Source: a virus
Virus record (IMG/VR): IMGVR_UViG_3300037070_003128
Span: 1-35,719 of that record
Reading direction: 5' to 3' (one strand)
Length of the DNA stretch: 35,719 nt
Both the position numbers and the translations under genes were made by a program. Positions within the stretch are counted from its first letter, which is position 1. Each line of letters starts with the position of its first letter. The notes under the pieces are model-generated. The model saw only the letters and a list, made by a program, of their open reading frames with translations. It did not search any database and was not told the DNA's origin. Shown here one piece after another: positions 5,644 to 34,673 of this stretch.

Positions 5644-6105
5644 TTAGGAACTAGGACAGTCGTAGTCGACGGTCAGCGTGCCGGTCATCGAAGCCACACC
5701 CCCTCTTGGAGGGTCGGTGACCATTGGGGAGAGGGTGATCCGCTTGCATTCTCCGATCCCCATCAGCAACCCGGTGTCCTTATCGTCTACGAGGCCGCAC
5801 CAGACCGCCCGCCCGATCGTGTACAGGGTCAGCGCAGCGGACTCCTCCTGTGTCACGGTCAAATCTCGTTCTTGGACCGGGTAGCAGGAGTACAACCGGA
5901 AGGCGAGAGTCAGCCGGGAGAGGGTGGTGCAGATCTGCGGGTCGGTGTCTCGAGGTTGGACGGAGACCACCCAGACTTTGATGAGTTCGCATCCGGTCCC
6001 GGTCGGGTCGGCGGGCTCACCGAACGTGACCGCGGCTTCGAGTCCGGTGTAGGTTTCGAGATCCCCGGCAAGCAAGAGGGCGAGGTCGTTCACAGCCGGT
6101 TCCAA
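5644..6105 (-). CDS. Probable tail terminator / tail completion protein
   Basis: 153 residues. It follows the HK97 gp10-like gene (16-base overlap) and comes before the tail chaperones, which is where tail terminator (gpU-like) proteins are encoded. An N-terminal helix (AVNDLALLLAGDLETYTGL) leads into alternating strands, compatible with the small alpha/beta fold of that family. No enzyme motif. In most siphoviruses the tail tube gene would come next, but here the nuclease/HTH pair does. Function is inferred from synteny. Confidence 0.5.
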   Translation of the reverse strand: MEPAVNDLALLLAGDLETYTGLEAAVTFGEPADPTGTGCELIKVWVVSVQPRDTDPQICTTLSRLTLAFRLYSCYPVQERDLTVTQEESAALTLYTIGRAVWCGLVDDKDTGLLMGIGECKRITLSPMVTDPPRGGVASMTGTLTVDYDCPSS

Positions 6106-6494
6106 ATCTCGGACACTCGTCGGGGGAGGTCTCGGACGGAGTCGGTGAACCAGGGGTTAGGCCGTGTGCCGGGGTGGTTGACCTGTTTGAAGTAGACCGT
6201 TTTCCCGTGCCACTGGAACCGGAGGGCGCGTCCGCGGGCGCGGATGACGTGGGGTCTCGTCCCTGTGGAAACCATTTGGGCGTAGTCGGTGTCTATGACG
6301 GCGACGATCTTGATCGAGTTGACCCGTCCCCCCAATCCTCCGTTTACTTCGTCGCGGACTTTCGTCCTCGAGCGCATCTGCCCGGTGTCGACTGGTGAGG
6401 TCCGGCGGAGTTCGGACTCCCATGAGGTGGCAAGAGTGCGGCCGACGATGCGGGCTTTCTGGTCGAGTTCCCGTCGGAGTTGGTCTAGCTCCAT
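6090..6494 (-). CDS. HK97 gp10-like head-tail connector component
   Basis: 134 residues from ATG 6494, which overlaps the previous stop by ten bases; the longer frame upstream is Arg/His-rich shadow. ELRRTSPVDTGQMRSRTKV (39-57) matches the S-P-V-D-T-G-x-M/L-R signature of HK97 gp10-like proteins. The later HVIRARGRALRF...PGTRPNPWF also fits this family. The protein would sit at the head-tail joint, helping close the connector. Confidence 0.72.
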   Translation of the reverse strand: MELDQLRRELDQKARIVGRTLATSWESELRRTSPVDTGQMRSRTKVRDEVNGGLGGRVNSIKIVAVIDTDYAQMVSTGTRPHVIRARGRALRFQWHGKTVYFKQVNHPGTRPNPWFTDSVRDLPRRVSEIWNRL

Positions 6495-7255
6495 ACGCTT
6501 GTGGGAAGGTCGGGGGAGTAGACGCGGGGAGCCCTGAGAAGATGGTTCGGGTTCAACGCGTGGTTGATGACGTCCACCTCGTACAAACCGGTGGCGCCGG
6601 ACGCGACAATCTCGGCGGGGTCGAACAGTTCCATTGTGGCTCCCTGACGGACAATGGTTTGTGTGGTTTTCGGGAGGGCGCATTCCACACCTGAGCAGGC
6701 TTTCACCAGTTCCGAAGCGAGAACGGTTGCGGCACGTTTCAGCATGGAGGGGATGGGCCGGCCGTAGGTGAGTTCGATGATGAACGTGTTTGCCCCGGAG
6801 TCGGCGGCGAGGTTCTGACAGCAAGGCCAGCGCCCCCCATCAGTTCTCACTAGGAATTGGTTGGAGTCGAGGCGGTAGTCGGTGAAGTCGTCGCCGTCCA
6901 AAGTGACGGATTCGACCGTTTGAATATCCGTCCTCCCAAGGTTGACGTTCGGATACCCCGAACACCCGCAAGCATCCATTGAACATCCGCAGGGGCCCTG
7001 GTTGATCCACACGCCTCCGGTGAGAATCGGCACCCAAGGGAACGACCAAAACATCGCCGACCAACCCAACGATGAACCCGAGTTGCCGCAAGGTCTAACG
7101 GTGGCTTCGCATTCCCCCGGATACTGCTTCCCCGTCAGGAGGTATTCGATTTCGGAGGCGCTTTGGATTGCCAGCTCTATGACCGTGGGCGAGGCGTCTT
7201 GGGGGCAGTCGCATTCCACCAGATCCGCCGGCGTCAGATACGGCGTACACAACAT
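6485..7255 (-). CDS. Head-tail adaptor (gp6-like), cysteine-rich
   Basis: 256 residues. LTPADLVECDCP... (7-18) and the helix VIELAIQSASEIEYLLTGKQYPG (25-47) look like the start of actinophage head-to-tail adaptors. The C-terminal half carries ...IPSMLKRAATVLASELVKAC and a Val/Asp-rich end. A central insert CGCSMDACGCSGYP has five cysteines within 14 residues, and there are further Cys near both ends. This suggests metal binding or disulfides in the connector. Its start shares one base with the stop of the next gene upstream. Confidence 0.65.
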   Translation of the reverse strand: MLCTPYLTPADLVECDCPQDASPTVIELAIQSASEIEYLLTGKQYPGECEATVRPCGNSGSSLGWSAMFWSFPWVPILTGGVWINQGPCGCSMDACGCSGYPNVNLGRTDIQTVESVTLDGDDFTDYRLDSNQFLVRTDGGRWPCCQNLAADSGANTFIIELTYGRPIPSMLKRAATVLASELVKACSGVECALPKTTQTIVRQGATMELFDPAEIVASGATGLYEVDVINHALNPNHLLRAPRVYSPDLPTSVWS

Positions 7256-7539
7256 CAGGATGACACCAACACTGAGGACGGCACGATGCAGACGCTCCCT
7301 TCACAAATGGTTGTTCCTTCCGCGGTCTCCCCGACCCATTCGTAATACCAGATCCCCACCTCGTCAAAGAGCACAACCGAAGTGAACGTCCCGGTGTCGG
7401 GGTTAGCAACGACGGGAGTGGTGATCGTGTCCGAAGGGTCGCGGATGGTCAAGGTAACGGTCGGGTTGACCGGGTCTCCTGAAGAGTCGGTCCAGACGGA
7501 GCGGAGGGTGCGGGAGGAACCGAGGGTGATATTGCTCAC
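7255..7539 (-). CDS. Small beta-rich virion protein
   Basis: 94 residues, with strands suggested by TLRSVWTDSSGDPVNPTVTLTIRDP and GIWYYEWVGE. The layout recalls Ig-like or BppU-N-like domains, which are common as accessory head or fibre-attachment modules. It overlaps the repeat-protein gene by four bases and the adaptor gene by one, so all three are co-translated. The partner is probably the large repeat protein or the connector (inference). Confidence 0.6.
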   Translation of the reverse strand: MSNITLGSSRTLRSVWTDSSGDPVNPTVTLTIRDPSDTITTPVVANPDTGTFTSVVLFDEVGIWYYEWVGETAEGTTICEGSVCIVPSSVLVSS

Positions 7540-9296
7540 GAGGTGATACTACCGACGCAGAGTGGGCCTAGAGAGTCACAGTCCCCGGAAGGTCCGATAT
7601 CTTCGCATTCCCCTACAGGTCCGAGAAGGTCGCAGACCACGTTCTCGATGTGGCCTGGCACTAGAGCTTCGCCGGTTCCCTGAGAGGTAACCCCGTCCAA
7701 CGTTGAACTTCCGGTCCCGGTGACGGGGTCGGCGACGGTACCGGAGCCCTGCGACACCACCCCGTCCAGAGAAGACGAGCCAGACGCGATGATGCCGAGG
7801 ACCCCGGAACCAGAAGACGTAACGCCAGCGAGGGTGCTTGAGCCCGTCCCAGAGACGGGATTGGCTACGACTCCCGCTCCCGCGGAAGAGACCCCTGCGA
7901 GAGTTGAAGCGCCTGTAGCGGTGAACCCTTCAACGCCTACTCCTGCGGACGTAACGCCGGCGAGGGTTGAAGCGCCGGTCCCGGAGATCGGGTTGACCAC
8001 CGATCCCGATCCTGCAGAAGTAACCCCGTCCAAGGTCGTCGACCCGGTGGCGAGCATCGACTCCGATCCGGAGCCTGCGGAGGTCACATCGTCGAGGGTG
8101 GAAGAGCCGGTCCCGGTGATCGCCGCTGACGCTAGGTTCATCCCCCAGACCATGAACCGACAATCGAGAGCGTTCAGGGTGGTCGCGTCGTTGTCGTGGA
8201 TGAACAGGTCGTAGTCGAGAGTCCCCGATACGGAAGTTTGGAAGCCGAGCAGGTAAGTGTTTTTTAGGTCGCTCCCATCGTGTGAAGCCCAGTTGGAAAT
8301 ACCCGAACCGTCATCTGCGACCGGGTCGAGGATGGTGCTTCCACCGGATCGGACCCACATGAACCCTTGCTGGTCGGTCGCATCAGTCGTTTTCCGGGCG
8401 AGCCCACAGAAGATCAGATCCTGCGACGTGGAGAGCGTGTCGGTGAGAGTGGCGATCTGAACGTCGGTTGCGCCGGCTACGGACACGGTGCCGGGGAGGG
8501 TCGTGTAAATGTCCGACCAGGCCGACCGGCGGAAAATAAAAACGTTCGACGACCGGTGGTCGTTAGTCGTCGCCCCGCTGTCGTCTCGGGCTTGAACGTC
8601 CACGGTATGCGAAGCATTAGTTAAGGCTTGCGCGTGCCAGTGGAAGCGGGCCAGCTCCTCATTGGCGGACTCCCCCTCCTCTGATACCGGCCCGTAAACC
8701 ACGGCACCGTCGACCCGCAACTGGCTTTCGAGGTTGTCTGCGACCGTGTCGATAACGAATTGGCCCGACGACAGGACGACATAATCGTCGGCGGCTGGCG
8801 TGAATGTTTTAGTCGCGAACGACACCATCGTATTGGTTAAGGCGGTGAGGCTCGTGTTCTCGTTCCACCACCAGTCCGTATTCTCCGATCCGAAATCGGC
8901 GAGACGTACGACGGTGATCGTCGCTAACTCAACCGTGCAGGCTGTGGCTGCAGTATTAGTGGCGACATCCAAATCAATGTCGGCAAGGGTGGCGAGATCC
9001 AACCGGAACAGCCACGGCAGGTTCTGCTCTAAACCGGTCGACCCGGGACCGTTCGAATCCGTCTGTTGAATGTTCCCGATCAGCGAACCGTTATAAGTGA
9101 CCTGCCCTCTCGCTTCAGCAGCGCCGGCGGCACCACCACGAAACAACCCCCATACGAGGAGCAGCACTTCATCGTTGTTGACGAACCCCGCGCCGGACAG
9201 ATCCGCCGCGGACACGGTGAGCGCCGTCGTGAACGTTGTCGACGTGTTCGAAACTTGGCTCGTGAGCCGTTCGAAATAGTGGACGGCCTGCGCCAT
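7536..9296 (-). CDS. Virion structural protein with seven 22-residue repeats
   Basis: 586 residues. The first 390 residues look like two beta-rich domains; the segments LLLVWGLFRGG...ATITVVRLADF and YVVLSSGQFVIDT...FIFRRSAWSDIY have similar strand order. Residues 393-548 hold seven imperfect repeats of the pattern GTGxSTLxxVTSxGxG followed by about six variable residues, alternating between NP-type and aliphatic/aromatic-type linkers. The last 38 residues contain five cysteines in a CDLLGPVGECEDIGPSGDCD-type run. The gene sits within the head-connector block, so a head decoration or fibre is as likely as a tail fibre. The repeats are shared with the gene at 17795-19030. Confidence 0.7.
   Translation of the reverse strand: MAQAVHYFERLTSQVSNTSTTFTTALTVSAADLSGAGFVNNDEVLLLVWGLFRGGAAGAAEARGQVTYNGSLIGNIQQTDSNGPGSTGLEQNLPWLFRLDLATLADIDLDVATNTAATACTVELATITVVRLADFGSENTDWWWNENTSLTALTNTMVSFATKTFTPAADDYVVLSSGQFVIDTVADNLESQLRVDGAVVYGPVSEEGESANEELARFHWHAQALTNASHTVDVQARDDSGATTNDHRSSNVFIFRRSAWSDIYTTLPGTVSVAGATDVQIATLTDTLSTSQDLIFCGLARKTTDATDQQGFMWVRSGGSTILDPVADDGSGISNWASHDGSDLKNTYLLGFQTSVSGTLDYDLFIHDNDATTLNALDCRFMVWGMNLASAAITGTGSSTLDDVTSAGSGSESMLATGSTTLDGVTSAGSGSVVNPISGTGASTLAGVTSAGVGVEGFTATGASTLAGVSSAGAGVVANPVSGTGSSTLAGVTSSGSGVLGIIASGSSSLDGVVSQGSGTVADPVTGTGSSTLDGVTSQGTGEALVPGHIENVVCDLLGPVGECEDIGPSGDCDSLGPLCVGSITS
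7653..8120 (-). repeat. Seven tandem 66-base coding repeats
   Basis: Degenerate direct repeats of about 66 bases encode the GTGASTLAGVTSAGxG units of the 586-residue virion protein. Recurrent plus-strand words are gtaacgccggcgagggttga and close variants. They are coding, not CRISPR: no constant repeat with unrelated spacers is present. Confidence 0.85.
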
Positions 9297-11386: not shown

Positions 11387-11443
11387 CCGCGACTACACGC
11401 TGACCTAACCCTGAACCTTACCTTGAGGGTCGGGCTCTAGCAA
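11387..11443 (-). promoter_or_regulatory. Putative late promoter and conserved leader element, copy A
   Basis: On the minus strand, TTGCTA (11443-11438) is followed after 17 bases by TAAGGT (11420-11415), fitting a -35/-10 pair with an actinobacterial TAnnnT -10 box. Just downstream, CAGCGTGTAGTCGCGG (11402-11387) matches 15 of 16 bases in the leader of the capsid gene. The ACCCTCAA word is also shared. The element overlaps the 3' end of the glycosyltransferase gene and serves the virion gene starting at 11370. Confidence 0.6.
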
Positions 11444-12035
11444 GGACTACGGGGGGGAGGGACCAGTCGACCAGTTCCGGTTGGTTGGCGAACCAGTAGG
11501 CGTGCCTGCCTCCGGTACGTCCTTGAACAAGGGAGGGCCCGTTCCGATGGTTCACCAGGGAAGGCCAGGTGTACCAGACGGGGACCCCGCTCCGTTCGAA
11601 CCATTTGGACAGTCTGAGATCGTAATTGTCGATCCGGTAATGCTCCCCCACTGCGAGAACCTTGCGGATCAGGTTGGTGGGGATCACGATGCCGGGCCCC
11701 CAAATGATCTGGCGCATCACCAGAAACGAGGCGTCTTTGACGTGGCGGACTTGGGAGCGGATCGAAGTTCCCGCGTAGAGAACCACCGGACTCCTTTCAG
11801 GAACATACTCGAGAGCTTTCGGGAGAATCCTGGTGAACCCGCGGCAGAGGACGGCGTCGTCTTGGATCACGCATCCGTATTCGGCTTCCGAATCTGCGAG
11901 GGCTTCCCACGCTCGTCTGCCGGTGTCCCACCGTGAGGACTGCTCATCCCAGGTGATCCCAGCTTTCAACGATTTGGCTAGGGGTCCGACCATCTCCATC
12001 CGGGAGGGGTGCGCCATCACCTGATAGGCGATCAT
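11418..12035 (-). CDS. Glycosyltransferase (GT25-like), paralogue of the 14.1-14.8 kb gene
   Basis: 205 residues from ATG 12035, chosen because it overlaps the previous stop (ATGA). Motifs shared with the plus-strand gene at 14111: AHPSR near the N-terminus, GITWDE...WDTGRRA, VIQDDAVL (about 56-63), YTWPSLVNHR and DWSLPPV at the C-terminus. The QDDA acidic pair is the likely metal/nucleotide-sugar site of a GT-A fold, as in LPS GT25 enzymes. It should move a sugar to a glycan or protein in the infected cell. It opens the island's left end, next to a virion gene. Confidence 0.75.
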   Translation of the reverse strand: MIAYQVMAHPSRMEMVGPLAKSLKAGITWDEQSSRWDTGRRAWEALADSEAEYGCVIQDDAVLCRGFTRILPKALEYVPERSPVVLYAGTSIRSQVRHVKDASFLVMRQIIWGPGIVIPTNLIRKVLAVGEHYRIDNYDLRLSKWFERSGVPVWYTWPSLVNHRNGPSLVQGRTGGRHAYWFANQPELVDWSLPPVVLARARPSR

Positions 12036-12331
12036 CTGACCCGCCCAAGATGGCTTAGGGCTTCGACACACTCATCCCCGAAGGCGGCGAAGAAAGTCGG
12101 GAACATAATCTCGGTGGGTTTCCCTTCACGTCCAAAGAGCAGTCGGTCGGTGTTCCTTAGCTCCCCGATGGCGGCGTCGGATTCCCATATGGCGAGACGC
12201 CAGAATGCTTTGACATATGGGAGGAGCGCGATGCCGTTCCGGTGGAAGATGAAGCGGTCCACCACCCACCGCGGAGTCAGGTAGTCGTCGGAAGTCTTCT
12301 CGGACTGCTCAACTTGGAATAGCTGGTTCAT
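12032..12331 (-). CDS. Shrunken Dam-like methyltransferase homologue (99 aa)
   Basis: Starts at ATG 12331 (ATGA overlap with FkbM gene). The N-terminal TSDDYLTPRWVVDRF resembles the start of phage N6-adenine methyltransferases. From about residue 28 the pattern ALLPYVKAFW...DRLLFGREGKPTEIMFPTFFAAFG matches their C-terminal half (RLRFG...APFPS). The middle, which should hold the DPPY/DPPF catalytic and SAM sites, is missing. It is therefore probably not an active DNA methylase; it may be a degraded gene or an adapted binding protein. The assignment is tentative. Confidence 0.5.
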   Translation of the reverse strand: MNQLFQVEQSEKTSDDYLTPRWVVDRFIFHRNGIALLPYVKAFWRLAIWESDAAIGELRNTDRLLFGREGKPTEIMFPTFFAAFGDECVEALSHLGRVR

Positions 12332-13502: not shown

Positions 13503-14121
13503 AGGGTTTCCCCTGTATGCGTCTTTGGTTCTGCCAGTGATGCACCGCGTACGAGTCGGGGTAGTCGTTGGCGCCGAGGTGGAGTTCGTTCCAGCGGTAC
13601 GGGTAGAAGTACCTCTGCGGATATTCAGTGATCTTGTGTCTCCGGGCGATGGGGGTGAAGAACTGGGGCCCCGATTTGACAGTGTTCCCCGCGCTCGGGT
13701 TCTGTCGTTCGACGTTGGCGGGGAGGCGTGCGATCAACTCGAGGAGCATGTCATGTCCCGGGGGAGCGCCGATGAGAGCGTTGTTCAACCATTGTCGGGT
13801 CTCCTGCCCGGCGAAGATTCCGTGTGCTAATGCGTCGAAGGGTCGCTGGCAGACGAAGTCGGCGTCAGCCCAGATCCCCCCGTCGTGGTAGAGGATCTCG
13901 TACCTAGCAACGTCGGAGCGGAACTGTTCGGGCGCTTTCGGTGAGATCTTCTCCGCGTTGTCCCACAGCTCCTGGTTCACTAAGCGCGGGGCTTCCGTCC
14001 AGAGTTTGACCTCCCATTCAGGGTGGTGCTCTTTCCAGGATTGCATCATCTGGTAGATGTGGAGGGGGAGTGGAGGTCCGATCCACATCTGGTGGATTAT
14101 CTTGGGGAGCGTGTTGTCCAT
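13489..14121 (-). CDS. DXD sugar-binding glycosyltransferase (OCH1/Gly_transf_sug)
   Basis: 210 residues from ATG 14121; sequence further upstream is the shadow of the plus-strand gene. LPKIIHQMWIGPPLP (5-19) is the standard N-terminus, and SDVARYEILYHDGGIWADAD (69-88) includes the catalytic DxD (D86, D88) that binds Mn and the nucleotide sugar. This family covers OCH1 mannosyltransferases and toxin glucosyltransferases. Its start overlaps that of the divergent plus-strand glycosyltransferase by about 11 bases, so each promoter must lie in the other's coding region. Confidence 0.85.
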   Translation of the reverse strand: MDNTLPKIIHQMWIGPPLPLHIYQMMQSWKEHHPEWEVKLWTEAPRLVNQELWDNAEKISPKAPEQFRSDVARYEILYHDGGIWADADFVCQRPFDALAHGIFAGQETRQWLNNALIGAPPGHDMLLELIARLPANVERQNPSAGNTVKSGPQFFTPIARRHKITEYPQRYFYPYRWNELHLGANDYPDSYAVHHWQNQRRIQGKPFVAV

Positions 14122-14818
14122 AAGGATCGCCGCCCATCCTAAGAGGGAAGCCTGGGCGAACGAGTTATCGAAGGTGCTGGACGCTCCGATCACTTGGGAT
14201 GAGAGGGACAACACATGGGACACTCACAGACGCGCCCTGCTTTCGGCTACGGGCACGCATTGTCTCATCGTGCAGGATGATGCGGTCCTCTCCGAAGGTC
14301 TCGTGGAGAGCGTTTCAAGGGCGGTCGAATATTCGGGGGAACATCCGATCTGTCTGTACTCCCAGAACACGAAACGCCTCGAGCAGGTCGCCTATTTGAA
14401 CCCCGTCTCCTGGTGGGCGGGTCTCGGGCCGTTGTATGGAGTAGCGAACGTTCTCCCCGTCGAACACATCAAGGACATCGTCCGGGTGGGGGATGTTTAC
14501 CGGGGGCCTTCCTACGACCGGCGGTTGTGGATGTGGTATTCGGCGAAGAAGATCGACGCGTACTACTCGTGGCCTTCCCTGGTTGAACATCGGGGTGTCG
14601 AATCGCTCATGTGGAAAGGCCGCCATGAACGTCCCGCCCACTCCTTCGGATCAGGCTTAGACATCGACTGGAGCATCCCTCCCGTACAGGCCACCCCCGA
14701 CAATATCTATCCGAAGGTGGTGATGGAGTTGGACGGCCAGTCGGTGACAGTACGGAAAATGTCGACCATGTGGCGGCGCCGGGTGGACGCAGGATGGAAA
14801 GAGAAAGCCCCCCGCTAG
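14111..14818 (+). CDS. Glycosyltransferase on the plus strand, GT25-like paralogue
   Basis: The only confident plus-strand gene in the window. 235 residues from GTG 14111; TTG 14114 (giving M-S-I-R-I) is an equal or better start because GGGGAG ends at 14109. AAHPKR, PITWDE...WDTHRRA, IVQDDAVL, YSWPSLVEHR and DWSIPPV are shared in order with the minus-strand gene at 11418-12035, so the two are duplicated copies in opposite orientation. It has an extra basic C-terminal tail (TMWRRRVDAGWKEKAPR). A strong terminator begins inside its last codons. Confidence 0.8.
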   Translation: MLSIRIAAHPKREAWANELSKVLDAPITWDERDNTWDTHRRALLSATGTHCLIVQDDAVLSEGLVESVSRAVEYSGEHPICLYSQNTKRLEQVAYLNPVSWWAGLGPLYGVANVLPVEHIKDIVRVGDVYRGPSYDRRLWMWYSAKKIDAYYSWPSLVEHRGVESLMWKGRHERPAHSFGSGLDIDWSIPPVQATPDNIYPKVVMELDGQSVTVRKMSTMWRRRVDAGWKEKAPR

Positions 14819-17794: not shown

Positions 17795-19030
17795 CTACCT
17801 TCCGGCTCGTCGTGCGGGTCTTCCCCCCGCCCGTCTCCCCCCGCGTCTGGTGTACTGGGCTCGGAGGACCGCTCTCGCTTCTTCTGGGTGTCGTCTGACT
17901 GGCCCTCCCCCTGAGGGTGGCGGGTTGGATATGAAGCCTGATCCGACACATTGCACCGGGCCCAATGTTGAAGCGCCGGTCCCGACCACCGCTCCGGGAG
18001 CAGCCACGATCCCCGAACCTGCGGAGGTGACATCTTCAAGGAGAAGGTTCCCGTCGCCGAGGATCAACAGTTCTGCGGACCCTGCCGAAGTCACATCGCC
18101 CAACGTTGTCGCGCCTGTGCCTGTGATCCCGAGTTCACCCGCGCCCGAAGAGGTGACGTCGTCCAACGTTGAAGCGCCGGTCCCGGTGATGTTGAGGCTT
18201 GCGCTTCCCGAACTGGTCACCCCGTCGAGGGTTGAAGCACCGGTACCGGTGATCCCGGTCAGGGAGGTTCCGGTGCCTGCCGAGGTCACGTCGTCGAGGG
18301 TTGACGTGCCGGTCGCGGTGAAGTTCTCCGACCCGACACCAGATGAGGCAACCCCGTCCAGAGTGGATGTTCCGGTGCCGGTGACCGGGTTAGCTACGAG
18401 GCCGGTCCCGACAGATGTGACCCCTGTGAGTGTGGTCGAACCGGTAGCGGTGAACGTTTCGGCGCCTACCCCCGCGGACGTAACCCCGGCGAGAGTCGAG
18501 GAGCCTGTGCCCGATACCGGGTTGGCGACAACCCCTGAGCCTGTTGATGTGACACCGGTGAGAGTCGATGATCCGGTGCCGAGGAAGCCTTCCGCCCCGG
18601 TTCCCGCGGAGGTGATCCCTGCCAGGGTGGACGCACCAGTACCGGTGATCGGATTCGCAACAACGCCCGACCCTGCCGAAGTCACTCCTGCCAGGGTTGA
18701 AGCGCCGCTCCCGAGGAAGGATTCCACTCCGGTTCCCGCGCTGGTTACTCCTGTAAGAGTTGAAGCGCCTGTGGCTAGGAACTTTTCGGTTCCGGTGCCT
18801 GCGGAGGTGACCCCTCCCAACGTGGAAGCTCCGGTGCCGGTGACCGGGTTGACAACGGTTCCCGAACCGGCCGAGGTGACTCCGGTGAGCGTCGAAGCGC
18901 CGGTGGCTATGAGTTTGAGTTGCCCCGTGCCGGCTGAAGTTACGCCGGTGAGGGTGCTAGATCCGGTCCCTGAAAGGTTATCGGGGAGGGACGATATTGC
19001 GAGGTCGGAGATCGGCGCGATGCCGAGCAT
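17795..19030 (-). CDS. Repeat-rich virion protein, sixteen 21-22-residue repeats
   Basis: 411 residues. The start MLGIAPISDLAISSLPDN is of a kind often seen in phage structural proteins. Residues about 20-365 are sixteen repeats of GTGASTLxGVTSAGxG plus a variable linker; linkers alternate between (V/A)NP(V/I) and F(L/T)-type, so the true unit may be about 43 residues. The regular spacing fits a beta-solenoid shaft (inference). The C-terminal 46 residues are Pro/Arg-rich and basic. The gene lies between protease and portal-side genes, favouring a head fibre or decoration. Confidence 0.7.
   Translation of the reverse strand: MLGIAPISDLAISSLPDNLSGTGSSTLTGVTSAGTGQLKLIATGASTLTGVTSAGSGTVVNPVTGTGASTLGGVTSAGTGTEKFLATGASTLTGVTSAGTGVESFLGSGASTLAGVTSAGSGVVANPITGTGASTLAGITSAGTGAEGFLGTGSSTLTGVTSTGSGVVANPVSGTGSSTLAGVTSAGVGAETFTATGSTTLTGVTSVGTGLVANPVTGTGTSTLDGVASSGVGSENFTATGTSTLDDVTSAGTGTSLTGITGTGASTLDGVTSSGSASLNITGTGASTLDDVTSSGAGELGITGTGATTLGDVTSAGSAELLILGDGNLLLEDVTSAGSGIVAAPGAVVGTGASTLGPVQCVGSGFISNPPPSGGGPVRRHPEEARAVLRAQYTRRGGRRAGGRPARRAGR
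17936..18973 (-). repeat. Sixteen tandem 63-66-base coding repeats
   Basis: About 1 kb of degenerate direct repeats encodes the repeat domain of the 411-residue protein. The plus-strand mirror contains runs of ccggcgagggt and gttgaagcgcc variants, and an apparent plus-strand reading frame made only of mirrored repeats. Units differ at wobble positions, so selection on the protein is likely. Confidence 0.88.
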
Positions 19031-20179: not shown

Positions 20180-20728
20180 TCAGTGATGCTTGGCTTCGTG
20201 TCGGCGCCTGGCATCTCGCTGGCACTCGGCGCAGCGTGTCTTGCCGGTAGAGCGTTCCACGATCCGATTCTCGGGGTAAGGGTGTAGGCCCGCTTGGCAA
20301 GTCGTCCACTCACGCCGATTGCGGAGGGCGACCCTGCGCATGTTCTCGTCGTTGGTGACTGGTTCAAGATGGGCCGGATTGACGCAGGCCCGGTTGAAGC
20401 AGAGGTGATCGAGCTGCATCCCCTCAGGGATCGGACCAACAAGAAGTTCGAAGGCCGCCCGATGGGCAAGCTGAGAGCGCCCGTCGTCTCTGTAGAACCG
20501 GCCATACCCTCGCTGCAGGTGACCGAGCCATGTCCAACATCCGCTCGGTTGTCGCATGACTCGATCCCAGAACCGATCTCCTTCTGATCGTCCTCTTGGC
20601 GCGCGGCGAGACATGTCCCGGATTGCGATGTAGGGGCTTCCGTGTCGGCGCCAGCGTTCGTAATGCATGCTGCACCATTCCCGGCAACGCAACACCTTCT
20701 CGCAGCCTTCAATTGAGCACCGATCCAT
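20180..20728 (-). CDS. HNH homing-type endonuclease, copy 1
   Basis: 182 residues. Two N-terminal cysteine/His patches (MDRCSIEGCEKVLRCREWCSMHYERW, residues 1-26) may bind zinc or DNA. GCWTWLGHLQRGYGR leads into AHRAAFELLVGPIPEGMQLDHLC (core HNH, with H and N of DHLCFNRACVNPAHL). Typical of phage HNH homing nucleases placed next to essential genes. It lies five bases before the portal stop, in the portal-to-fibre junction. Paralogues are at 23.5 and 27.3 kb. Confidence 0.85.
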   Translation of the reverse strand: MDRCSIEGCEKVLRCREWCSMHYERWRRHGSPYIAIRDMSRRAPRGRSEGDRFWDRVMRQPSGCWTWLGHLQRGYGRFYRDDGRSQLAHRAAFELLVGPIPEGMQLDHLCFNRACVNPAHLEPVTNDENMRRVALRNRREWTTCQAGLHPYPENRIVERSTGKTRCAECQRDARRRHEAKHH

Positions 20729-20732
20729 CTAC

Positions 20733-22853
20733 TCATGCTACCTGCTCCTGAGGGATAGGGACCACTACCAGGTCTGCAATACAAACGCAGCCGCGATGGT
20801 CTGACGGGTGCATGAAGTCCACTCCCAACCATGCTGCAGACAATGGGGGTTTGAGTCTCGGGTCGGTCCAGGAGGTGAACCGGAATCCGTTGAGATGCTG
20901 GTGCGGTTCGAACGGTACGGTCGGCGCTCCCACACTCCATTGGCGTTCTTCGACTTGGAACCCGATCGTAGTGATGAGGTTCTGTCCGTATTCTCCGGTG
21001 GCGAGTCCTCGAGTGTTGAAATCTCCGGGTACCCCCCCACCAGCAACGGTCATGCCGTCGAAGACGAGGGAGGCTGGGATATCAGTGCTTCCGACTTCTC
21101 CGGTTTCGGCGGGGTCCGGTTCCAGGTCAGGTGTGAACAGGCGTCTCCGCGCTAAACCGATGAGCCCTCCCACTAACCCGGCCAAAGCGGCGGTGATCCA
21201 GTTGTCTTCTTCGGGTGGGGCTTCCGGCTTGATCCCGGTGAGTTGTTCCAACGTGGAACGGGTTTGGGCTTGCCCCTCGGTGAGCAATCTCTTCGCCCGT
21301 TGGCTGAAACGGTCGAACGCCCCCTCAGGTATCAGGTCTTCTTCGGAGAGCTGCAACGTTTCCACCGTGGCCCGTCCCACAGTGAATGGGACGATGATCG
21401 GGTCGAGCCCCTGAATCGACATCGCAAGAGGGTCTTTGGGGCTTCGTCGTGAGTCGCCGCGGATCTGGCTTCTTACTCTTTGGCCGGCCTTCTCCAACGC
21501 TCTGTCCAGTGAGGCTTGAGCGGCTTCGGCGAGTTGGGTGAACAACCGGTGGTCGATCGCGGCTAGTGAGGGGGGAGGGGAAGCGGCGGTGAGAGTGTCG
21601 GGGATACCCTGAACCTCCACTAGAGGGTTGGTCTGAGTAGGAACCGGGTCGGATTCGTCGGGTGCGTCACCCTCAGTGAACCCGATCGTTCTGCGGGCGG
21701 CGGAAGCGGAGATGATCTGCGCTTCGAACGAAGCCAACGCGTCGGCAGCGGTGACACTTCTCGAGGTGAGGTCGGAGTAGTCACGCCAGAACAGGTAACG
21801 GTCAAAGTCCTCCACCCCCGCAGCTTGAAGGGCCGGCCACAGATAGCCTCGAGTGAACGAGTCGAGCACGTCGAGGACGAGAGGGTCGACATAGTTCAAC
21901 CTCAGCGAATCGTCGATGAGCCACTGGCCCCAATGGTTCACATCCGCCAAACCGGTGAGGATCTCGGCGGGGATGTCCAACCCAATCGCGATCTGACGCA
22001 AGATGCGCTCCATGACCTCCGGCACCCACTCCTGAATGTCCCGAGTCAGGTCAACCGTCTTCACCCCATCAGCGAAAGCGAACGGCACTTCAATGGAGAT
22101 CGGAGTGATCCGGTTCGCGTTGCGTGGGTCCGACACCGCGGCGCTCATCGCCTTGTTGAGCCAGGAGCCGAACGTCTGCGCGTTCCCGTTGTCGTCGGTG
22201 GTGGGGAAGTCCATCTCCGAAGGGGTGATGACCAGCGGAGCGACCAGACGGGATTGGGCCAGGGAGGTGAGCATGTCGGAAAAGGCGATGTACTGTTCGC
22301 ATTGTCTGACCACCCCGCGCATCCCCGAATCAGGCTTGGACCGTTTCATCGGGTGGGCCCGCCAGGAGCGCATGATGAAGTCTCCGGTTTTGATCGCCTT
22401 GGCTGCATCATCATCCAAGTCCGAGCGGAGTCCTTGGCGGTTCTCGTCGTATTCCACCGGAGACCAGATATCCCACTCCTCATCGCCGTCGAGGTTCTGG
22501 CCTACCAGATACCCTTCCCCGGGGATCTCCCAATGCAGAGCCATTTCAGCGACGAAATTCCCGAAATCCCCGTTAGGCCCCTGAAGACGGTCGTACGCTT
22601 CCCGAGCCGGCCCATCATCGATCGGGACCGGGTCCTCGTCGGGGTTCTCGATGACCGCGGGGAAATAGGTGATCTTCGATGCGGCTTGGAACTTGGAGCG
22701 CAACGCGGCGTGAACCGGACCCAACTCCGAATACAACGAGTACAGGTAGGCGGCGTCTGGAGCTTTCGACCGCGCCGAAGGGTCTTGAGGGTCGAGGATG
22801 CGGGATGCGGCGGCGGTGAGGACAACAGGATAGGAACGGCGGAATAGTGCCAC
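20733..22853 (-). CDS. Portal protein with MuF-like C-terminal domain
   Basis: 706 residues, longer than the about 450-500 of actinophage portals. The first 400 residues fit HK97-type portals: helices such as AYLYSLYSELGPVHAALRSK, then ERILRQIAIGLDIPAEILTGLADVNHWGQW, the signature of the family. After a linker the C-terminal 130 residues contain GLVGGLIGLARRRL, then PFEPHQHLNGFRFTSWTDP and HPSDHRGCVCIADLVVVP, which resemble MuF-type ends (HxxCRC). The two proteins are usually separate genes, so this looks like a fusion. The portal is the DNA channel of the head. Confidence 0.85.
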   Translation of the reverse strand: MALFRRSYPVVLTAAASRILDPQDPSARSKAPDAAYLYSLYSELGPVHAALRSKFQAASKITYFPAVIENPDEDPVPIDDGPAREAYDRLQGPNGDFGNFVAEMALHWEIPGEGYLVGQNLDGDEEWDIWSPVEYDENRQGLRSDLDDDAAKAIKTGDFIMRSWRAHPMKRSKPDSGMRGVVRQCEQYIAFSDMLTSLAQSRLVAPLVITPSEMDFPTTDDNGNAQTFGSWLNKAMSAAVSDPRNANRITPISIEVPFAFADGVKTVDLTRDIQEWVPEVMERILRQIAIGLDIPAEILTGLADVNHWGQWLIDDSLRLNYVDPLVLDVLDSFTRGYLWPALQAAGVEDFDRYLFWRDYSDLTSRSVTAADALASFEAQIISASAARRTIGFTEGDAPDESDPVPTQTNPLVEVQGIPDTLTAASPPPSLAAIDHRLFTQLAEAAQASLDRALEKAGQRVRSQIRGDSRRSPKDPLAMSIQGLDPIIVPFTVGRATVETLQLSEEDLIPEGAFDRFSQRAKRLLTEGQAQTRSTLEQLTGIKPEAPPEEDNWITAALAGLVGGLIGLARRRLFTPDLEPDPAETGEVGSTDIPASLVFDGMTVAGGGVPGDFNTRGLATGEYGQNLITTIGFQVEERQWSVGAPTVPFEPHQHLNGFRFTSWTDPRLKPPLSAAWLGVDFMHPSDHRGCVCIADLVVVPIPQEQVA

Positions 22854-23370: not shown

Positions 23371-23497
23371 CTTTCACCTTCTTCTGTTCGGCTTGCGCAA
23401 GGCGCTGGGTTCGTAGCTGTTGCCGAACTTGTTGCTGTTGGGCGCGCTTCGCTTCGCGGGCTGCACGCTTGGCGGGGTCTGAACAGCTGCAACTAAT
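23363..23497 (-). CDS. Small Gln/Arg-rich protein with possible ATT start
   Basis: 44 codons beginning with ATT 23497. AGGAGG lies about seven bases upstream, inside the HNH gene end, and no ATG, GTG or TTG exists in this frame in the region. The product ISCSCSDPAKRAAREAKRAQ... has Cys-Ser-Cys near its start and a long basic helix with four consecutive Gln. Its TGA overlaps the TTG start of the next gene by eight bases, as expected for coupled genes. It may alternatively be a remnant cut off from its old start by the HNH insertion. Confidence 0.42.
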   Translation of the reverse strand: MSCSCSDPAKRAAREAKRAQQQQVRQQLRTQRLAQAEQKKVKVG

Positions 23498-23984
23498 TTG
23501 GGGCCTCCTCTCGACACGATCGACAGCGACCGTTGATGCAATCGCAGTCTCGCTTACGGACCGTCTTGTCCTTGCCTTCTGCTCGGTACTGACGGTGACG
23601 TTCGTTGGCGCAGGTCTGACAATGGCGACTCGTTGGGAGGCGGTGCCCTCGCTGGCAGTAGACCTTTCGAGCGTGCTTGGCTTGAGGGGAGTAGCCGCGC
23701 ATCACGTTCTCGACCGCGGACACGACATCAAGGTGGTCGGGGTTGACGCAGATCTTGTTACGACAGAGATGGTCGATCGTCATGCCTTCGGGGATCGGGC
23801 CTCCTAATGCCTCGTAGATCAGCCGGTGCGCTTTCCATTGGGTCCGGCCCACGGTGGTCACCCCATAGCCTTGAACGGCCTTGGTGCCAGTCCACTCCCA
23901 GCAGTCGCCAGCGGCGTCAATCTGGTCAGCAAATGAAGGGCGCCGATCCCAGGGCAGACCCCGCTCTGCGAACAGGTCGATCAT
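23493..23984 (-). CDS. HNH homing-type endonuclease, copy 2
   Basis: 163 residues. GDCWEWTGTKAVQGYGV (26-42) then AHRLIYEALGGPIPEGMTID HLC and NKICVNPDHLD give the HNH core. The C-terminus has Cys/His pairs (CQRGH, CQTCANERH, CDCINGRCRSC) of zinc-ribbon type. It is inserted between terminase and portal-side genes, leaving only four bases after the terminase stop. Same family as copies at 20.2 and 27.3 kb. Confidence 0.85.
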   Translation of the reverse strand: MIDLFAERGLPWDRRPSFADQIDAAGDCWEWTGTKAVQGYGVTTVGRTQWKAHRLIYEALGGPIPEGMTIDHLCRNKICVNPDHLDVVSAVENVMRGYSPQAKHARKVYCQRGHRLPTSRHCQTCANERHRQYRAEGKDKTVRKRDCDCINGRCRSCREEAPN

Positions 23985-27258: not shown

Positions 27259-27702
27259 CTAGGCAAGTAACCCAGCTCGCTTCCTGCGTTGATACTCCCG
27301 ACTTCGGATGCGCCCGCACTCGTCACACCCCCGGTTCACGGCAGTCCGCCCGGTGACGCGCTTGTCATGACCCGCAGGGCAGATAAAGATACGACGGGGG
27401 AACCCGCGGGCGACGTTCTCGATCATCGACACTGGCTCCAGGTGGTCAGGGTTCACGCACCGACGATTCCTACACAGGTGGTCGAGTGTCATCTCCTCCT
27501 GAATAGGCCCGACCAGATAAGCCCAGACGACTCGATGCGCGAGTACCTCCCCGGTCGCTTTGCTCTTGACTCGCCCATAGCCTTTGGGGTTGAGATACCC
27601 GGTCCACTCCCAACAATCGCCGGAGGCGTCGATGGAATCCGAGATCGGGGGATGAACGGTCCCGGTCGAATCTACCCGAGAAGCGAAAAGATCAAGCGTC
27701 AC
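27259..27702 (-). CDS. HNH homing-type endonuclease, copy 3
   Basis: 147 residues from GTG 27702; frame sequence before it belongs to the neighbouring lytic gene. SGDCWEWTGYLNPKGYGR, AHRVVWAYLVGPIQEEMTLDHLC and NRRCVNPDHLEPV give the HNH core in the same order as the copies at 20.2 and 23.5 kb. CGRIRSREYQRRKRAG at the end is basic. It lies next to the transglycosylase gene. Confidence 0.8.
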   Translation of the reverse strand: MTLDLFASRVDSTGTVHPPISDSIDASGDCWEWTGYLNPKGYGRVKSKATGEVLAHRVVWAYLVGPIQEEMTLDHLCRNRRCVNPDHLEPVSMIENVARGFPRRIFICPAGHDKRVTGRTAVNRGCDECGRIRSREYQRRKRAGLLA

Positions 27703-27719
27703 TAAGTGGATAGTAGTCG

Positions 27720-28232
27720 CTATAAACCACAGACACGGCGCGTTCTCGGACTCCACGGTTGCCAGCCGGACTTCTCCCATATGCGGGCGGCGGCCCATAC
27801 GTTCAGTTCAGGGACGTAAAGGTCTTCGTACTCCCAACCAAAGTAAGGAGTCCAAACGCTGGCCATAATCTGAAAGAGCCCTTTCGCCGAAGATCGAGGA
27901 TTGGCGGCGTTGCTGTTCCCGCCGCTTTCCGAGTTGATGACGCAGAGCGCGTTGTCAACCTGCTCGGCGGGGAATTGCGTTGCGACAAGGGTCCGCCACT
28001 GTTCCACTGAAGATCCCATCCCCCGGTAGACGTAGTCCGACGTGGTTTGGAGGGTGACCGCCGTGTGGGATTCGGGGAGTCGCATGACAGCATCCCACCC
28101 TTCACTATGTGTTTCCCATTCCAGGTTGATCCGTTCAAAGACGGGGAGGGGAGGTGGGGGCGGTTCGGGAAGCCGGAGCGGTTCAGGACTCAGAACAGAA
28201 ACGACGAATAGAAGAGGGAGGAGGAGCTGCAT
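27720..28232 (-). CDS. Secreted lytic transglycosylase / lysozyme-like
   Basis: 170 residues. The start MQLLLPLLFVVSVLS is a signal or anchor segment, followed by a Pro-rich linker (PEPPPPPLP). ALCVINSESGGNSNAANPRSSAKGLFQIM (95-123) is the SLT/lysozyme core, with E102 as the catalytic acid. ELNVWAAARIWEKSGWQPWSP fits the end of the fold. Cleaves peptidoglycan glycan strands. It has no obvious SD. A second wall enzyme, an M15 peptidase, lies at 33.8 kb. Confidence 0.82.
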   Translation of the reverse strand: MQLLLPLLFVVSVLSPEPLRLPEPPPPPLPVFERINLEWETHSEGWDAVMRLPESHTAVTLQTTSDYVYRGMGSSVEQWRTLVATQFPAEQVDNALCVINSESGGNSNAANPRSSAKGLFQIMASVWTPYFGWEYEDLYVPELNVWAAARIWEKSGWQPWSPRTRRVCGL

Positions 28233-30493: not shown

Positions 30494-31090
30494 TCATTCG
30501 TCCTCGCGTCCTGACATGACGAACACCCAACCGAGAATCATCGACGCTGCAGCAGCGAAGGCGAGAGTCGTCCACATGAACTCCGACAACCCGGTGAAAG
30601 GCAGTGTGCTACCCGATCCGGGAACCGAAGAAGATGTTGAAGGTAGGGAAGTCGTGGTCGATCCGGCAGGGCTCGTCGTGGTAGTCGTGGCAAGAGAGGA
30701 CGTCGTGGTCGTGTCGGATAATGTGGTCGACGTTTCCTCTATCCCGGTAGTGGTGGTGGTGTCCTGAACCGTCGTCGTTGTTTCCAGTTCCGTAGTAGAA
30801 GTGGTCGCCACCGTCGTAGTCGTTCCGTTGTGACATTTCTTCACCACATCCCATGATCGGCCAGCCGCATAGTCCGCCGGGTTCACGAACGTGTCGTGCC
30901 CGTTGGTCTGCACCGTTGTTACGAGTTGGCCGTCCTCGTAGAATTCGGCGTAATCATACGACCCGGGGATACGCCCCGAATGGTTCTGGAAGGTTTGACA
31001 GTTCCCAGTAGCCCCCGCGGGCAGGGTGAACAGCAGCCACCCGGCCAGTACAAGCCCCAGAATCGTCACTCCGCTCAACAGTTTTCTCAT
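30494..31090 (-). CDS. Secreted Thr-rich protein with LPFTG sortase-type signal
   Basis: 198 residues from ATG 31090 with GGAG upstream. MRKLLSGVTILGLVLAGWLLFTLPAGA (1-27) is a signal peptide. A small domain with two cysteines (31 and 86) follows (to about 88), then a Thr/Ser stalk (90-162). STLPFTG (161-167), a TM span (172-192) and a short SGREDE tail complete a wall-anchor layout. Sortases of Gram-positive hosts would cut between T166 and G167. Tail charge is acidic rather than the usual basic. A surface-displayed phage protein may alter phage adsorption to the host (inference). Confidence 0.82.
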   Translation of the reverse strand: MRKLLSGVTILGLVLAGWLLFTLPAGATGNCQTFQNHSGRIPGSYDYAEFYEDGQLVTTVQTNGHDTFVNPADYAAGRSWDVVKKCHNGTTTTVATTSTTELETTTTVQDTTTTTGIEETSTTLSDTTTTSSLATTTTTSPAGSTTTSLPSTSSSVPGSGSTLPFTGLSEFMWTTLAFAAAASMILGWVFVMSGREDE

Positions 31091-31113: not shown

Positions 31114-31410
31114 TTACCGGGCGCCGAACCGTTGATCCAGTGCCACGTCGAACCATTCCCTCACAGTCGGCGCGTCAGGCTCTACTACCGGACCCACCGA
31201 AAGACTCGTATCCAACTGGCCGGGAAACATGACGTCATACTCCGCAACGGTCACGCAGCCGTCGTCGTCCGCGGTGGTGCCGTTCCACACTCCGAGCACG
31301 CCGTTGTCTTCGCAGACTCCGTTGCCAAGGTCGGTGGCGGCGTCCGCGGGGAACGCAAACATCAACACCAATCCGATCACGGCCAACGTCTTCCTGATTA
31401 TCTGTCTCAC
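31114..31410 (-). CDS. Secreted small protein (98 aa)
   Basis: GTG 31410 has GGAG about seven bases upstream; the longer frame to 31605 is shadow. RQIIRKTLAVIGLVLMFAFPADA (2-24) is a signal peptide with an Ala-x-Ala-type cut. The mature part has two cysteines and the acidic sequence NGTTADDDGCVTVAEYDVMF, faintly like a calcium-binding loop. Neighbour of the LPFTG protein, and both would be exported. Confidence 0.72.
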   Translation of the reverse strand: MRQIIRKTLAVIGLVLMFAFPADAATDLGNGVCEDNGVLGVWNGTTADDDGCVTVAEYDVMFPGQLDTSLSVGPVVEPDAPTVREWFDVALDQRFGAR

Positions 31411-31421
31411 TTGTTCTCCTT

Positions 31422-32015
31422 CTAGAACGGCAGAGCATCCGGTTTGTCCTCGTAGTAGGTGGCTGTCATGTGAGCGACCACCTGTTTCGCTTGTTCCATC
31501 GTCAACGGATTCTTGAATCCGAGGTCGGCCATCGCCGCGTTTCCCGCCTTCTTCTTCTGCTCGGGCGTCCACAGTCCGAACATCGCAACCGAATCGGCGA
31601 GCCATTGTTTCGGGTCCAACTCAGGATCTGTACGAACCGGCGCCGGCGGAGGGGTCTGGTCGGCTTTCCTGGTGGGCCGCTCCTGAGATCTCGCTACTTC
31701 GTCCCGTGAGGCGATCCCCCTCGATGCGTCAGCTATCAGCCCGGCGATCAGCGCTCGACCCCAGGCGGCGGTCTCGGCGTTCTGGAGTTCGGAGTCCTTG
31801 GTGAATGGCGTCGGTCCCGGTACGGGCTCCCACGCCAAACCGACACCGGGAGTGAGATCGTCAGGGCTCTTGTAGGCGTAAGCCTTGACCGCGACGAACC
31901 CAGGGAACCCGGCGTCTATCACTTCGGATTCGAGCCGCCCACCCGGGTGCGCCTCTTTGAATTGGGCGATTCGCTCAGACACCGGGACGTAATCGGACAG
32001 GTCGATCTTGCTCAT
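31422..32015 (-). CDS. Probable single-strand annealing protein (Erf/Rad52-like)
   Basis: 197 residues from ATG 32015 (ATGA overlap). DYVPVSERIAQFKEAHPGGRLESEVI (7-32) and FVAVKAYAYKSPDDLTPGVGLAWE, then ELQNAETAAWGRALIAGL (about 76-93), follow the pattern of phage Erf/Sak-type annealing proteins. The C-terminus carries a Pro-rich linker and a short helix-turn tail. The protein would promote recombination-dependent replication or repair. No exonuclease or SSB partner was seen in the window. Confidence 0.65.
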   Translation of the reverse strand: MSKIDLSDYVPVSERIAQFKEAHPGGRLESEVIDAGFPGFVAVKAYAYKSPDDLTPGVGLAWEPVPGPTPFTKDSELQNAETAAWGRALIAGLIADASRGIASRDEVARSQERPTRKADQTPPPAPVRTDPELDPKQWLADSVAMFGLWTPEQKKKAGNAAMADLGFKNPLTMEQAKQVVAHMTATYYEDKPDALPF

Positions 32016-32194
32016 TTGGTGTCCTTCGCTTTGTACATATCGACCGTCATCGGAAGAACCCACTTATCCCCGAACTCAGCCACGAACTCCTCCCAGGCAC
32101 CCGGCCCCGAGAAGTCCACGCTCATCACAACACGGGGAGAGTGCGGTAAGTCAGCGGATGTTTCGATCCGCACTACTGATGCGACCACTTTCAT
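32012..32194 (-). CDS. Hypothetical protein (60 aa)
   Basis: Overlaps both neighbours by four bases. KVVASVVRIETSADLPHSPRVVMSVDFSG then GAWEEFVAEFGDKWVLPM. Beta-rich then helical. No family recognised, but the sequence is protein-like and position beside the annealing protein suggests a DNA-metabolism accessory. Confidence 0.6.
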   Translation of the reverse strand: MKVVASVVRIETSADLPHSPRVVMSVDFSGPGAWEEFVAEFGDKWVLPMTVDMYKAKDTK

Positions 32195-33247: not shown

Positions 33248-33282
33248 AGGTCACCATACAGCAGTGATAGGTGACCTGTCAA
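33248..33282 (-). promoter_or_regulatory. Sigma70-like promoter with inverted-repeat operator
   Basis: Minus-strand TTGACA (33282-33277), 18-base spacer, TATGGT (33258-33253). An 8-base inverted repeat AGGTCACC/GGTGACCT (33248-33255 and 33270-33277) overlaps the -10 box and abuts the -35 box. A repressor bound there would block transcription. The promoter points at the operon beginning at 33221. The palindrome half-sites lie about two helix turns apart, centre to centre. Confidence 0.75.
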
Positions 33283-33771: not shown

Positions 33772-34398
33772 TTACGGGTTAATGGCCGCGTTGGCGAGAG
33801 CTTCGGTCTGCACTTCGAGGTAGAACGACACCCAATCCGGGTTCGTCGGTGTCCCGAGGATGGAGAGGTAATAGTTGGTGATGGTCGTCCGATCCGAAGA
33901 GCCCGGGGAGATCACCCACACTCCCCCCTGACCTTTCTTGTTGCAGATCGCTTTGACCTGCTCCTGGCTGAGCTTCGACGCGAATTCGGTTGCGGTCATG
34001 TCATAGTCTCCTATCGGTGGCGGAACGTAGGGTTCAACGTTGAAGGTGCGGCCGATCGTCCCGTCCTTATGTTTCACCCTCAGAGGTCCCCCCTTACAGG
34101 GTGGGGTTCCGATCCCGGTCGGCCAAGTGTCTAAGTGGACATGGTCGAAATGGTTTTTGACTCTCCACAGGACGGCTTTCACGTTGGGTTGTTGACGGAG
34201 ATACCAGGCGACCGAATCGAGAATGGGGATAGGTCCGAAAAAGTCGGCGGCGTTCCCCTCATACTCCCCCTCCGTATACGAATGTTGCGACCATGTGAAC
34301 GTCCCCAAAATGTACCGGCATGACCAGGCGCCGACCGTGACCACCTTGTACCGGTCGATCACATCGTCGACCAGACCCTGCACTCGGGGAGTTTTCAC
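33772..34398 (-). CDS. Peptidase M15-type endolysin
   Basis: 208 residues from GTG 34398 (GTGA overlap). SQHSYTEGEYEGNAADFFG (37-55) and KNHFDHVHLD (81-90) carry the M15 zinc site: H39, D52 and H88 (H86 as alternative). These enzymes cleave peptidoglycan cross-links. A C-terminal segment (ATEFASKLSQEQVKAICNKK, then VWVISPGSSDRT) may bind the wall or membrane. The neighbouring TM proteins are probable holin partners. Confidence 0.8.
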   Translation of the reverse strand: MKTPRVQGLVDDVIDRYKVVTVGAWSCRYILGTFTWSQHSYTEGEYEGNAADFFGPIPILDSVAWYLRQQPNVKAVLWRVKNHFDHVHLDTWPTGIGTPPCKGGPLRVKHKDGTIGRTFNVEPYVPPPIGDYDMTATEFASKLSQEQVKAICNKKGQGGVWVISPGSSDRTTITNYYLSILGTPTNPDWVSFYLEVQTEALANAAINP

Positions 34399-34673
34399 GA
34401 TCCGAGAGTAGCAATCAGTTGGACGACGAGCCCGCTGAGAGCGGCGATGATCGCCACCCACACCGGGATGGGCAGCCGGATTTTGATTCCCCCATTGTTC
34501 AGAGTTCGGATCAGCTCATCCACCTTCGCGATGAGTCCCTCCTCCTCAGCTCGGCCGCCCCCACGGAAGTCTGACACTTTCGGACCGACAACGGCGACGG
34601 CGAGTTCCTCCACATTCTTTTCAACGTGGTCGATACGTTGTTCCAGGTCGGCGTTGGTGGGTTCGTCGGGCAT
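34395..34673 (-). CDS. Coiled-coil plus single-TM protein
   Basis: 92 residues. ADLEQRIDHVEKNVEELAVAV (8-28) and GLIAKVDELIRTLNNGG are heptad helices, then a span IPVWVAIIAALSGLVVQLIATLG. Upstream of the endolysin, so a holin, antiholin or spanin-like membrane partner is likely. Coupled to the endolysin GTG. Confidence 0.65.
   Translation of the reverse strand: MPDEPTNADLEQRIDHVEKNVEELAVAVVGPKVSDFRGGGRAEEEGLIAKVDELIRTLNNGGIKIRLPIPVWVAIIAALSGLVVQLIATLGS

What the first reader, a model, noticed from the sequence alone, without database searches (positions are those of the whole stretch)
30494..31090. Phage gene for a sortase-type (LPFTG) Thr-rich wall-anchored protein
Signal peptide, small Cys-containing domain, about 70-residue Thr/Ser stalk, LPFTG, TM span. 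Sortase-substrate proteins are bacterial surface proteins and rarely phage-encoded. It may coat the infected or lysogenic host to block superinfection, or act in phage-host recognition. The many Thr are potential O-glycan sites for the phage's own transferases.
Basis: partly seen in the sequence, partly recalled or inferred. Interest (0 to 1): 0.82.

Follow-up and report, generated by a model that had tools for sequence, protein, structure and literature searches.

The report
Phage family of sortase-anchored surface proteins
This phage carries a gene for a protein built to be exported and fixed to its bacterial host's cell wall; related phages with different packaging genes carry the same phage-only head domain on the same kind of anchor, which suggests that these phages redecorate the infected cell's surface, most likely to keep rival phages out.

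Summary
It encodes a signal peptide, a two-Cys beta domain, a Thr/Ser stalk, LPFTG, a transmembrane helix and a short tail. Composition-matched shuffles reproduce the sorting-signal geometry in 2 of 200,000 cases. The gene is not an orphan. Two other viral contigs carry clear homologues of the head domain (about 50-55% identity), a third carries a distant one, and all keep signal peptide, stalk, LPFTG and TM span. The window's terminase is not detectable in any of the three. The head domain was found in no cellular genome (0 of 395 Acidimicrobiia, 0 real in 251 Actinomycetota) and in no Pfam, NCBIfam, PHROGs, PDB or fold library. Stalk and anchor look like those of Acidimicrobiia surface proteins, and the two genomes checked encode sortases; these phages do not. 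Four further viral contigs carry LPFTG-anchored proteins with unrelated heads. Best explanation: a host sortase displays the phage head domain on the infected cell, most likely as superinfection exclusion. Export and anchoring are well supported by sequence; the function is inferred. Prophage LPXTG proteins (SasX) are known; this head family is new.

The parts
30494..31090 (-). LPFTG-anchored protein gene (198 aa, P0001)
   Evidence: ORF and translation; 100% identical over residues 1-181 in contig IMGVR_UViG_3300037119_002018; homologues L219, L220, L197
31097..31102 (-). ribosome-binding site AAGGAG
   Evidence: sequence
31010..31090 (-). signal peptide, residues 1-27, ending A-G-A
   Evidence: hydropathy; helix 2-20 in model; signal-peptide-like N-termini in all homologues
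30824..31009 (-). head domain, residues 28-89, beta fold, Cys31 and Cys86 probably a disulfide
   Evidence: AF2 pLDDT 92.5; 53% identity to L219 and L220 heads; pN 0.29-0.30 against pS 0.68-0.72
30605..30823 (-). Thr/Ser-rich stalk, residues 90-162
   Evidence: composition; pLDDT below 50 over most of it
30590..30604 (-). LPFTG sorting motif, residues 163-167
   Evidence: sequence; invariant in the family
30512..30583 (-). transmembrane helix, residues 170-193
   Evidence: model; hydropathy
30497..30511 (-). cytoplasmic tail, residues 194-198
   Evidence: sequence; Acidimicrobiia proteins end similarly in RRDEE or RRDEG
31114..31410 (-). small secreted-type protein (GTG start, signal peptide, two Cys), 23 bases upstream; possible partner
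   Evidence: sequence and AAGGAG site; no family match
31422..32063 (-). probable recombination-type gene (phrog_23738, function unknown) heading the tight three-gene group
   Evidence: PHROGs 4e-36; a single-strand-annealing-type gene (phrog_3290) lies two genes upstream of the homologue in G400
33253..33282 (-). promoter-like site TTGACA-18-TATGGT before the gene block that includes the LPFTG gene
   Evidence: consensus scan only

Best explanation
The gene encodes a phage-specific surface-display protein. After infection the protein leaves by the Sec route, is held at the membrane by its C-terminal helix, and the host's own sortase (the phage has none) cuts at LPFT|G and links it to peptidoglycan. 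The Thr/Ser stalk lifts a compact disulfide-type beta domain through the wall to the surface. The most likely role of that domain is superinfection exclusion: it blocks an adsorption or DNA-injection component of competing phages during the lytic cycle. Well supported by sequence: export signal, anchor, stalk, conserved head under purifying selection, spread across phages with unrelated terminases. Inferred: sortase processing, timing, and the exclusion function.
For: Architecture and LPFTG kept in all homologues. Clear head homologues in L219 and L220, a distant one in L197. The window terminase is not found in those contigs, so the gene sits in different phage backgrounds. Head under purifying selection: pN 0.155 against pS 0.75 between L219 and L220. 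Head absent from 395 Acidimicrobiia genomes and 251 Actinomycetota genomes sampled, so it is not simply a captured host gene. Anchor is host-like: exact GSTLPFTG in a real sorting signal only in Acidimicrobiia and Thermoleophilia MAGs among 25 genome matches; 5 of 6 ELPFTG matches in 148 Acidimicrobiia genomes are real sorting signals; both genomes checked encode sortases while 8 phage records have none. Gene is outside the virion module, in a tight group with a recombination-type gene, as in G400. Precedents: Ltp, a phage-encoded surface lipoprotein causing exclusion (PMC3952083); CwpV, a wall protein that blocks phage DNA injection (PMC4737114).
Against: No functional data. The head has no significant fold match, so its ligand is unknown. 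The tail has one basic residue here and none in L219, weaker than the canonical positive tail. No integrase, so the protein would act only in the short lytic window; most known exclusion proteins come from temperate phages, though T4 Imm and Sp are counterexamples (cited in PMC4737114). Host not identified directly. The shared tape-measure domain is not specific to carriers: 541 phage records match it.
Confidence: 0.5

Rival explanations
1. The protein is displayed on the infected cell but serves another purpose: adhesion, aggregation of infected cells, protection from grazing, or holding progeny near new hosts.
For: Same anatomy as bacterial adhesins. Other viral contigs put quite different heads on the same stalk and anchor (L203, L213, L238, L241), including a helix-hairpin-helix domain, so surface display may serve several roles. 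SasX is a prophage LPXTG protein linked to colonisation (PMC7285666).
Against: A lytic phage gains little from long-term adhesion; no adhesin family or fold matched.
Confidence: 0.25
2. The protein acts on the host wall locally, for example as a regulator or partner of the phage's own wall enzymes (secreted SLT protein 27720-28232, peptidase-type lysin 33772-34461) or of the secreted protein encoded just upstream.
For: Same strand and region as a signal-peptide transglycosylase and a small secreted protein.
Against: The SLT and upstream secreted genes have no detectable relative in the homologue-bearing loci; the head shows no wall-binding family.
Confidence: 0.12
3. It is only a single-pass membrane protein; LPFTG is inherited decoration and no sortase acts on it.
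For: Weak basic tail here, none in L219; the host is unidentified.
Against: LPFTG is invariant in the family and is the local sorting motif in Acidimicrobiia, while the rest of the C-terminal region varies freely (pN 0.43-0.50).
Confidence: 0.1
4. It is a recently captured host surface protein or misassembled host DNA with no phage function.
For: Stalk and anchor are host-like.
Against: The gene is flanked by phage genes, is present in a second contig assembly that joins the window's two ends, and the head occurs only in viral contigs.
Confidence: 0.03

Closest known systems
SasX / SesI (phiSPbeta-like prophages of staphylococci)
   Same: Phage-borne gene for a signal-peptide, LPXTG-anchored surface protein (PMC7285666, PMC6048232)
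   Different: Temperate staphylococcal prophage and a role in colonisation; sequence relation not tested; here no integrase, a different head, an actinobacterial-type LPFTG anchor
Ltp-type superinfection-exclusion lipoproteins (phage TP-J34)
   Same: Small phage-encoded domain displayed outside the membrane of a Gram-positive host (PMC3952083)
   Different: Ltp is lipid-anchored; this protein has no lipobox and carries a wall-sorting signal and a long stalk
CwpV of Clostridioides difficile
   Same: Cell-wall surface protein that blocks phage DNA injection (PMC4737114); functional analogy only
   Different: Host-encoded; not anchored by an LPXTG signal (own knowledge)
Acidimicrobiia Thr-stalk LPFTG proteins (L163, L170, L181)
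   Same: Signal peptide, small Cys domain, TTTT stalk, LPFTG, TM span, in part RRDE-type tails
   Different: Head domains unrelated; cellular genes

Membership tests
LPXTG sortase substrates | N-terminal signal peptide | tested here: met
   Hydropathy 2.22, basic n-region MRK, A-G-A before T28; helix 2-20; no dedicated predictor was available
LPXTG sortase substrates | LPXTG motif near the C-terminus, conserved in homologues | tested here: met
   LPFTG at 163-167, invariant in 4 of 4
LPXTG sortase substrates | Hydrophobic span directly after the motif | tested here: met
   Helix 170-193, hydropathy 2.16
LPXTG sortase substrates | Positively charged tail | tested here: inconclusive
   SGREDE has one Arg; L220 VRRVSDET and L197 VRVARD have more; L219 SVGEPE has none
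LPXTG sortase substrates | Covalent anchoring by a sortase | not testable with these tools
   Sortases found in the two host-type genomes checked, none in the phages
Ltp-type exclusion lipoproteins | Lipobox with the lipidated Cys at the cleavage site | tested here: not met
   Sequence around the first Cys is A-T-G-N-C31, no lipobox
Superinfection-exclusion proteins (functional class) | Protects the expressing cell from a second phage | not testable with these tools
   Needs an experiment
SasX/SesI | Sequence homology to SasX | not tested
   No direct comparison was made; no Pfam, NCBIfam or plasmid match for P0001
Any Pfam, NCBIfam or PHROGs family | Significant profile match of the head domain | tested here: not met
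   None for P0001 at useful E-values; none for the homologues in PHROGs, and only low-complexity or sub-cut-off stalk matches in Pfam

The most novel reading that the evidence does not exclude
Phages of Acidimicrobiia-like actinobacteria use a common, undescribed strategy: they mount interchangeable phage-specific head domains on host-style Thr stalks with LPFTG signals, so that the host's sortase coats the infected cell with them during lytic infection to exclude rivals. The NHSG/PGSYDYA head is one of several such modules moving between unrelated phages.
Probability: 0.3. Interest if true: 0.8.

Novelty: new variant of a known kind. Interest (0 to 1): 0.6.

Why it matters
Phage takeover of the sortase pathway is known mainly from a few prophage virulence factors. 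A phage-only head-domain family spread across phages with unrelated terminases and apparently without integrases would make sortase display a general way of remodelling the infected cell. It is testable with one displayed domain, and the heads could reveal which virion components or receptors are contested among phages of little-cultured actinobacteria.

Tried and rejected
(1) Orphan or chance ORF: rejected by homologues and shuffles. (2) Captured host protein: head not found in the actinobacterial genomes sampled (395 and 251, with some overlap); the single hit, L445, has two stops and is false. (3) Tape-measure protein as a carrier-specific shared target, suggested by Ltp: all carriers share a tape-measure domain, but 541 diverse phages match it too, so it is not specific. 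(4) Fold-based function: best PDB match E 0.14 and best viral match E 0.17, not significant. (5) PDB sequence match to complement control proteins, E 0.46, chance. (7) A first attempt to find homologues by peptide patterns of P0001 alone found only the same phage population. (8) Pattern PGSYDYA gave no further family member. (9) Terminase relatives: no convincing anchored protein in 80 loci, but many loci are short.

Full report
Observation. The gene is at 31090..30494 on the minus strand, the strand of nearly all genes in the window, with AAGGAG six bases before ATG. The 198-residue product has a signal peptide, Cys31 and Cys86 in a small domain, a stalk that is 66% Thr+Ser, LPFTG at 163-167, a hydrophobic span and the tail SGREDE. 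Third-position G+C is 0.67, in the range of the other genes (0.64-0.77), while the first two positions are skewed by the Thr codons. Shuffling the mature chain 200,000 times produced an LPxTG with sorting-signal geometry twice.

The phage. The window is an IMG/VR record. A second contig, identical wherever it overlaps, covers both ends of the window and separates them by 2,304 bases, so the genome is about 38.0 kb and circular or circularly permuted. The missing stretch completes a tail protein and a repeat-rich tail-spike-like protein. Terminase, portal, tape measure, a peptidase-type lysin and holin-like proteins are present. No integrase was recognised: the ORFs above 280 aa are assigned to virion, portal or terminase genes or have no Pfam match. 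The tape-measure domain is closest to cultured Microbacterium and Arthrobacter phages, in line with an actinobacterial host.

A family, not an orphan. Direct searches with P0001 in phages, plasmids, genomes, Pfam, NCBIfam, PHROGs and PDB gave nothing useful. Scanning viral contigs for codons of ELPFTG gave 63 matches; seven are real sorting signals at the end of Thr-stalked ORFs. Two, L219 and L220, share the head domain clearly (BLASTP E 3e-25 for L219; conserved NHSG-x-x-PGSYDYA-x-FYE ... SWD-x-V-x-KCH), and L197 shares it distantly. All four keep signal peptide, both Cys, stalk and LPFTG. A search with the head alignment recovered the two clear relatives and the window's own population. The window's terminase is not detected in those contigs; the carriers otherwise share only scattered genes such as HNH/NinG, a small HTH-like gene and the tape-measure domain. 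So the gene moves between phage backgrounds. Between L219 and L220 the head has pN 0.155 and pS 0.75: selection keeps it.

Head specific to viruses, anchor like the host's. Profile searches for the head in 395 Acidimicrobiia genomes and 251 Actinomycetota genomes found none (the one weak hit contains two stops). The search tool warns that an empty answer without a positive control is weak, and this applies. The rest of the protein is typical of Acidimicrobiia: full-length searches found cellular proteins with Thr stalks, LPFTG and tails such as RSRRDEE and ARRDEG; 5 of 6 ELPFTG matches in 148 Acidimicrobiia genomes are real sorting signals, against 2 of the 5 matches outside those genomes in a phylum sample; exact GSTLPFTG sorting signals turned up only in an Acidimicrobiia MAG (two contigs) and a Thermoleophilia MAG. 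Both MAGs encode sortases. Eight phage records, the window included, have none.

Structure. With four sequences AlphaFold2 folds the head at pLDDT 92.5, pTM 0.77, four strands and a short helix. The two Cys lie in the first and last strands; a disulfide is inferred. The full-length model shows signal helix, head, unstructured stalk and TM helix. Foldseek gives no significant match in PDB or BFVD, so the fold gives no function.

Position. The gene follows, within 23 bases, a small secreted-type protein gene, itself 11 bases after a recombination-type gene (phrog_23738). In G400 the homologue overlaps by four bases a small gene that follows a single-strand-annealing-type gene. A promoter-like site lies at 33282-33253 before this block. 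This suggests transcription with DNA-metabolism genes rather than with virion genes, which fits a role during infection; timing is inferred.

Wider pattern. Four other viral contigs (L203, L213, L238, L241) carry LPFTG proteins with unrelated heads: one lies antisense between tail genes behind a small possible regulator gene, one directly follows a lysin-type gene and contains a helix-hairpin-helix domain, the others lie among DNA-metabolism genes. The scans covered only some codons, so these counts are lower bounds.

Mechanism. Shown by sequence: export signal, sorting signal, stalk, conserved phage-specific head. Inferred: host sortase anchoring (about 85% likely), display on the infected cell, and superinfection exclusion (about 50%). 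Ltp and CwpV show that small surface domains on Gram-positive cells can stop phage DNA entry (PMC3952083, PMC4737114). Phage-borne LPXTG proteins are known from staphylococcal prophages (SasX/SesI; PMC7285666, PMC6048232). I found no report of this family, nor of sortase substrates in actinobacterial phages, in the held library, which lacks most subscription papers.

Limits. No dedicated signal-peptide or sortase predictor was run; host not proven; collection scans were codon-restricted; bacterial genomes were sampled, not exhausted.

Noticed in passing
window 1 and 35719; L133:1372-3675: A second contig, identical in the overlaps, bridges the two window ends with a 2,304-base stretch, so the window is most of a roughly 38.0 kb circular or circularly permuted phage genome.
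   Followed up: yes
L379/L380 (G402) 21803-22644: LPFTG protein gene encoded antisense between tail genes, directly after a 58-aa possible regulator gene; looks like a moron.
   Followed up: partly
L373 9009-10019 (-) and L378 5660-6523 (+): Two head-family carriers share a second Thr-rich secreted protein (about 34% identity over 91 residues) with a Cys pair before the stalk and no LPFTG, next to lysis genes.
   Followed up: no
window 17795-19030 and 7536-9296 (-): Two proteins with many copies of a GTGASTLxGVTSAGxG-like peptide repeat; similar protein in G403. Tandem Repeats Finder reports no DNA array there.
   Followed up: partly
window 20180-20728, 23493-23984, 27259-27798 (-): Three related HNH endonuclease genes, also related to HNH genes in the head-family carriers.
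   Followed up: partly
window 27720-28232 (-): Signal-peptide protein with an SLT transglycosylase domain outside the lysis cassette; no match in the phage collection.
   Followed up: partly
window 14057-14818 (+): A rare plus-strand ORF resembling the glycosyltransferase at 11418-12071, inside a block of methyltransferase and glycosyltransferase genes among the virion genes.
   Followed up: no
L386 (G405) 6034-6777 (-): LPFTG-anchored protein with a helix-hairpin-helix domain directly after a lysin-type gene; might bind DNA at the cell surface.
   Followed up: no
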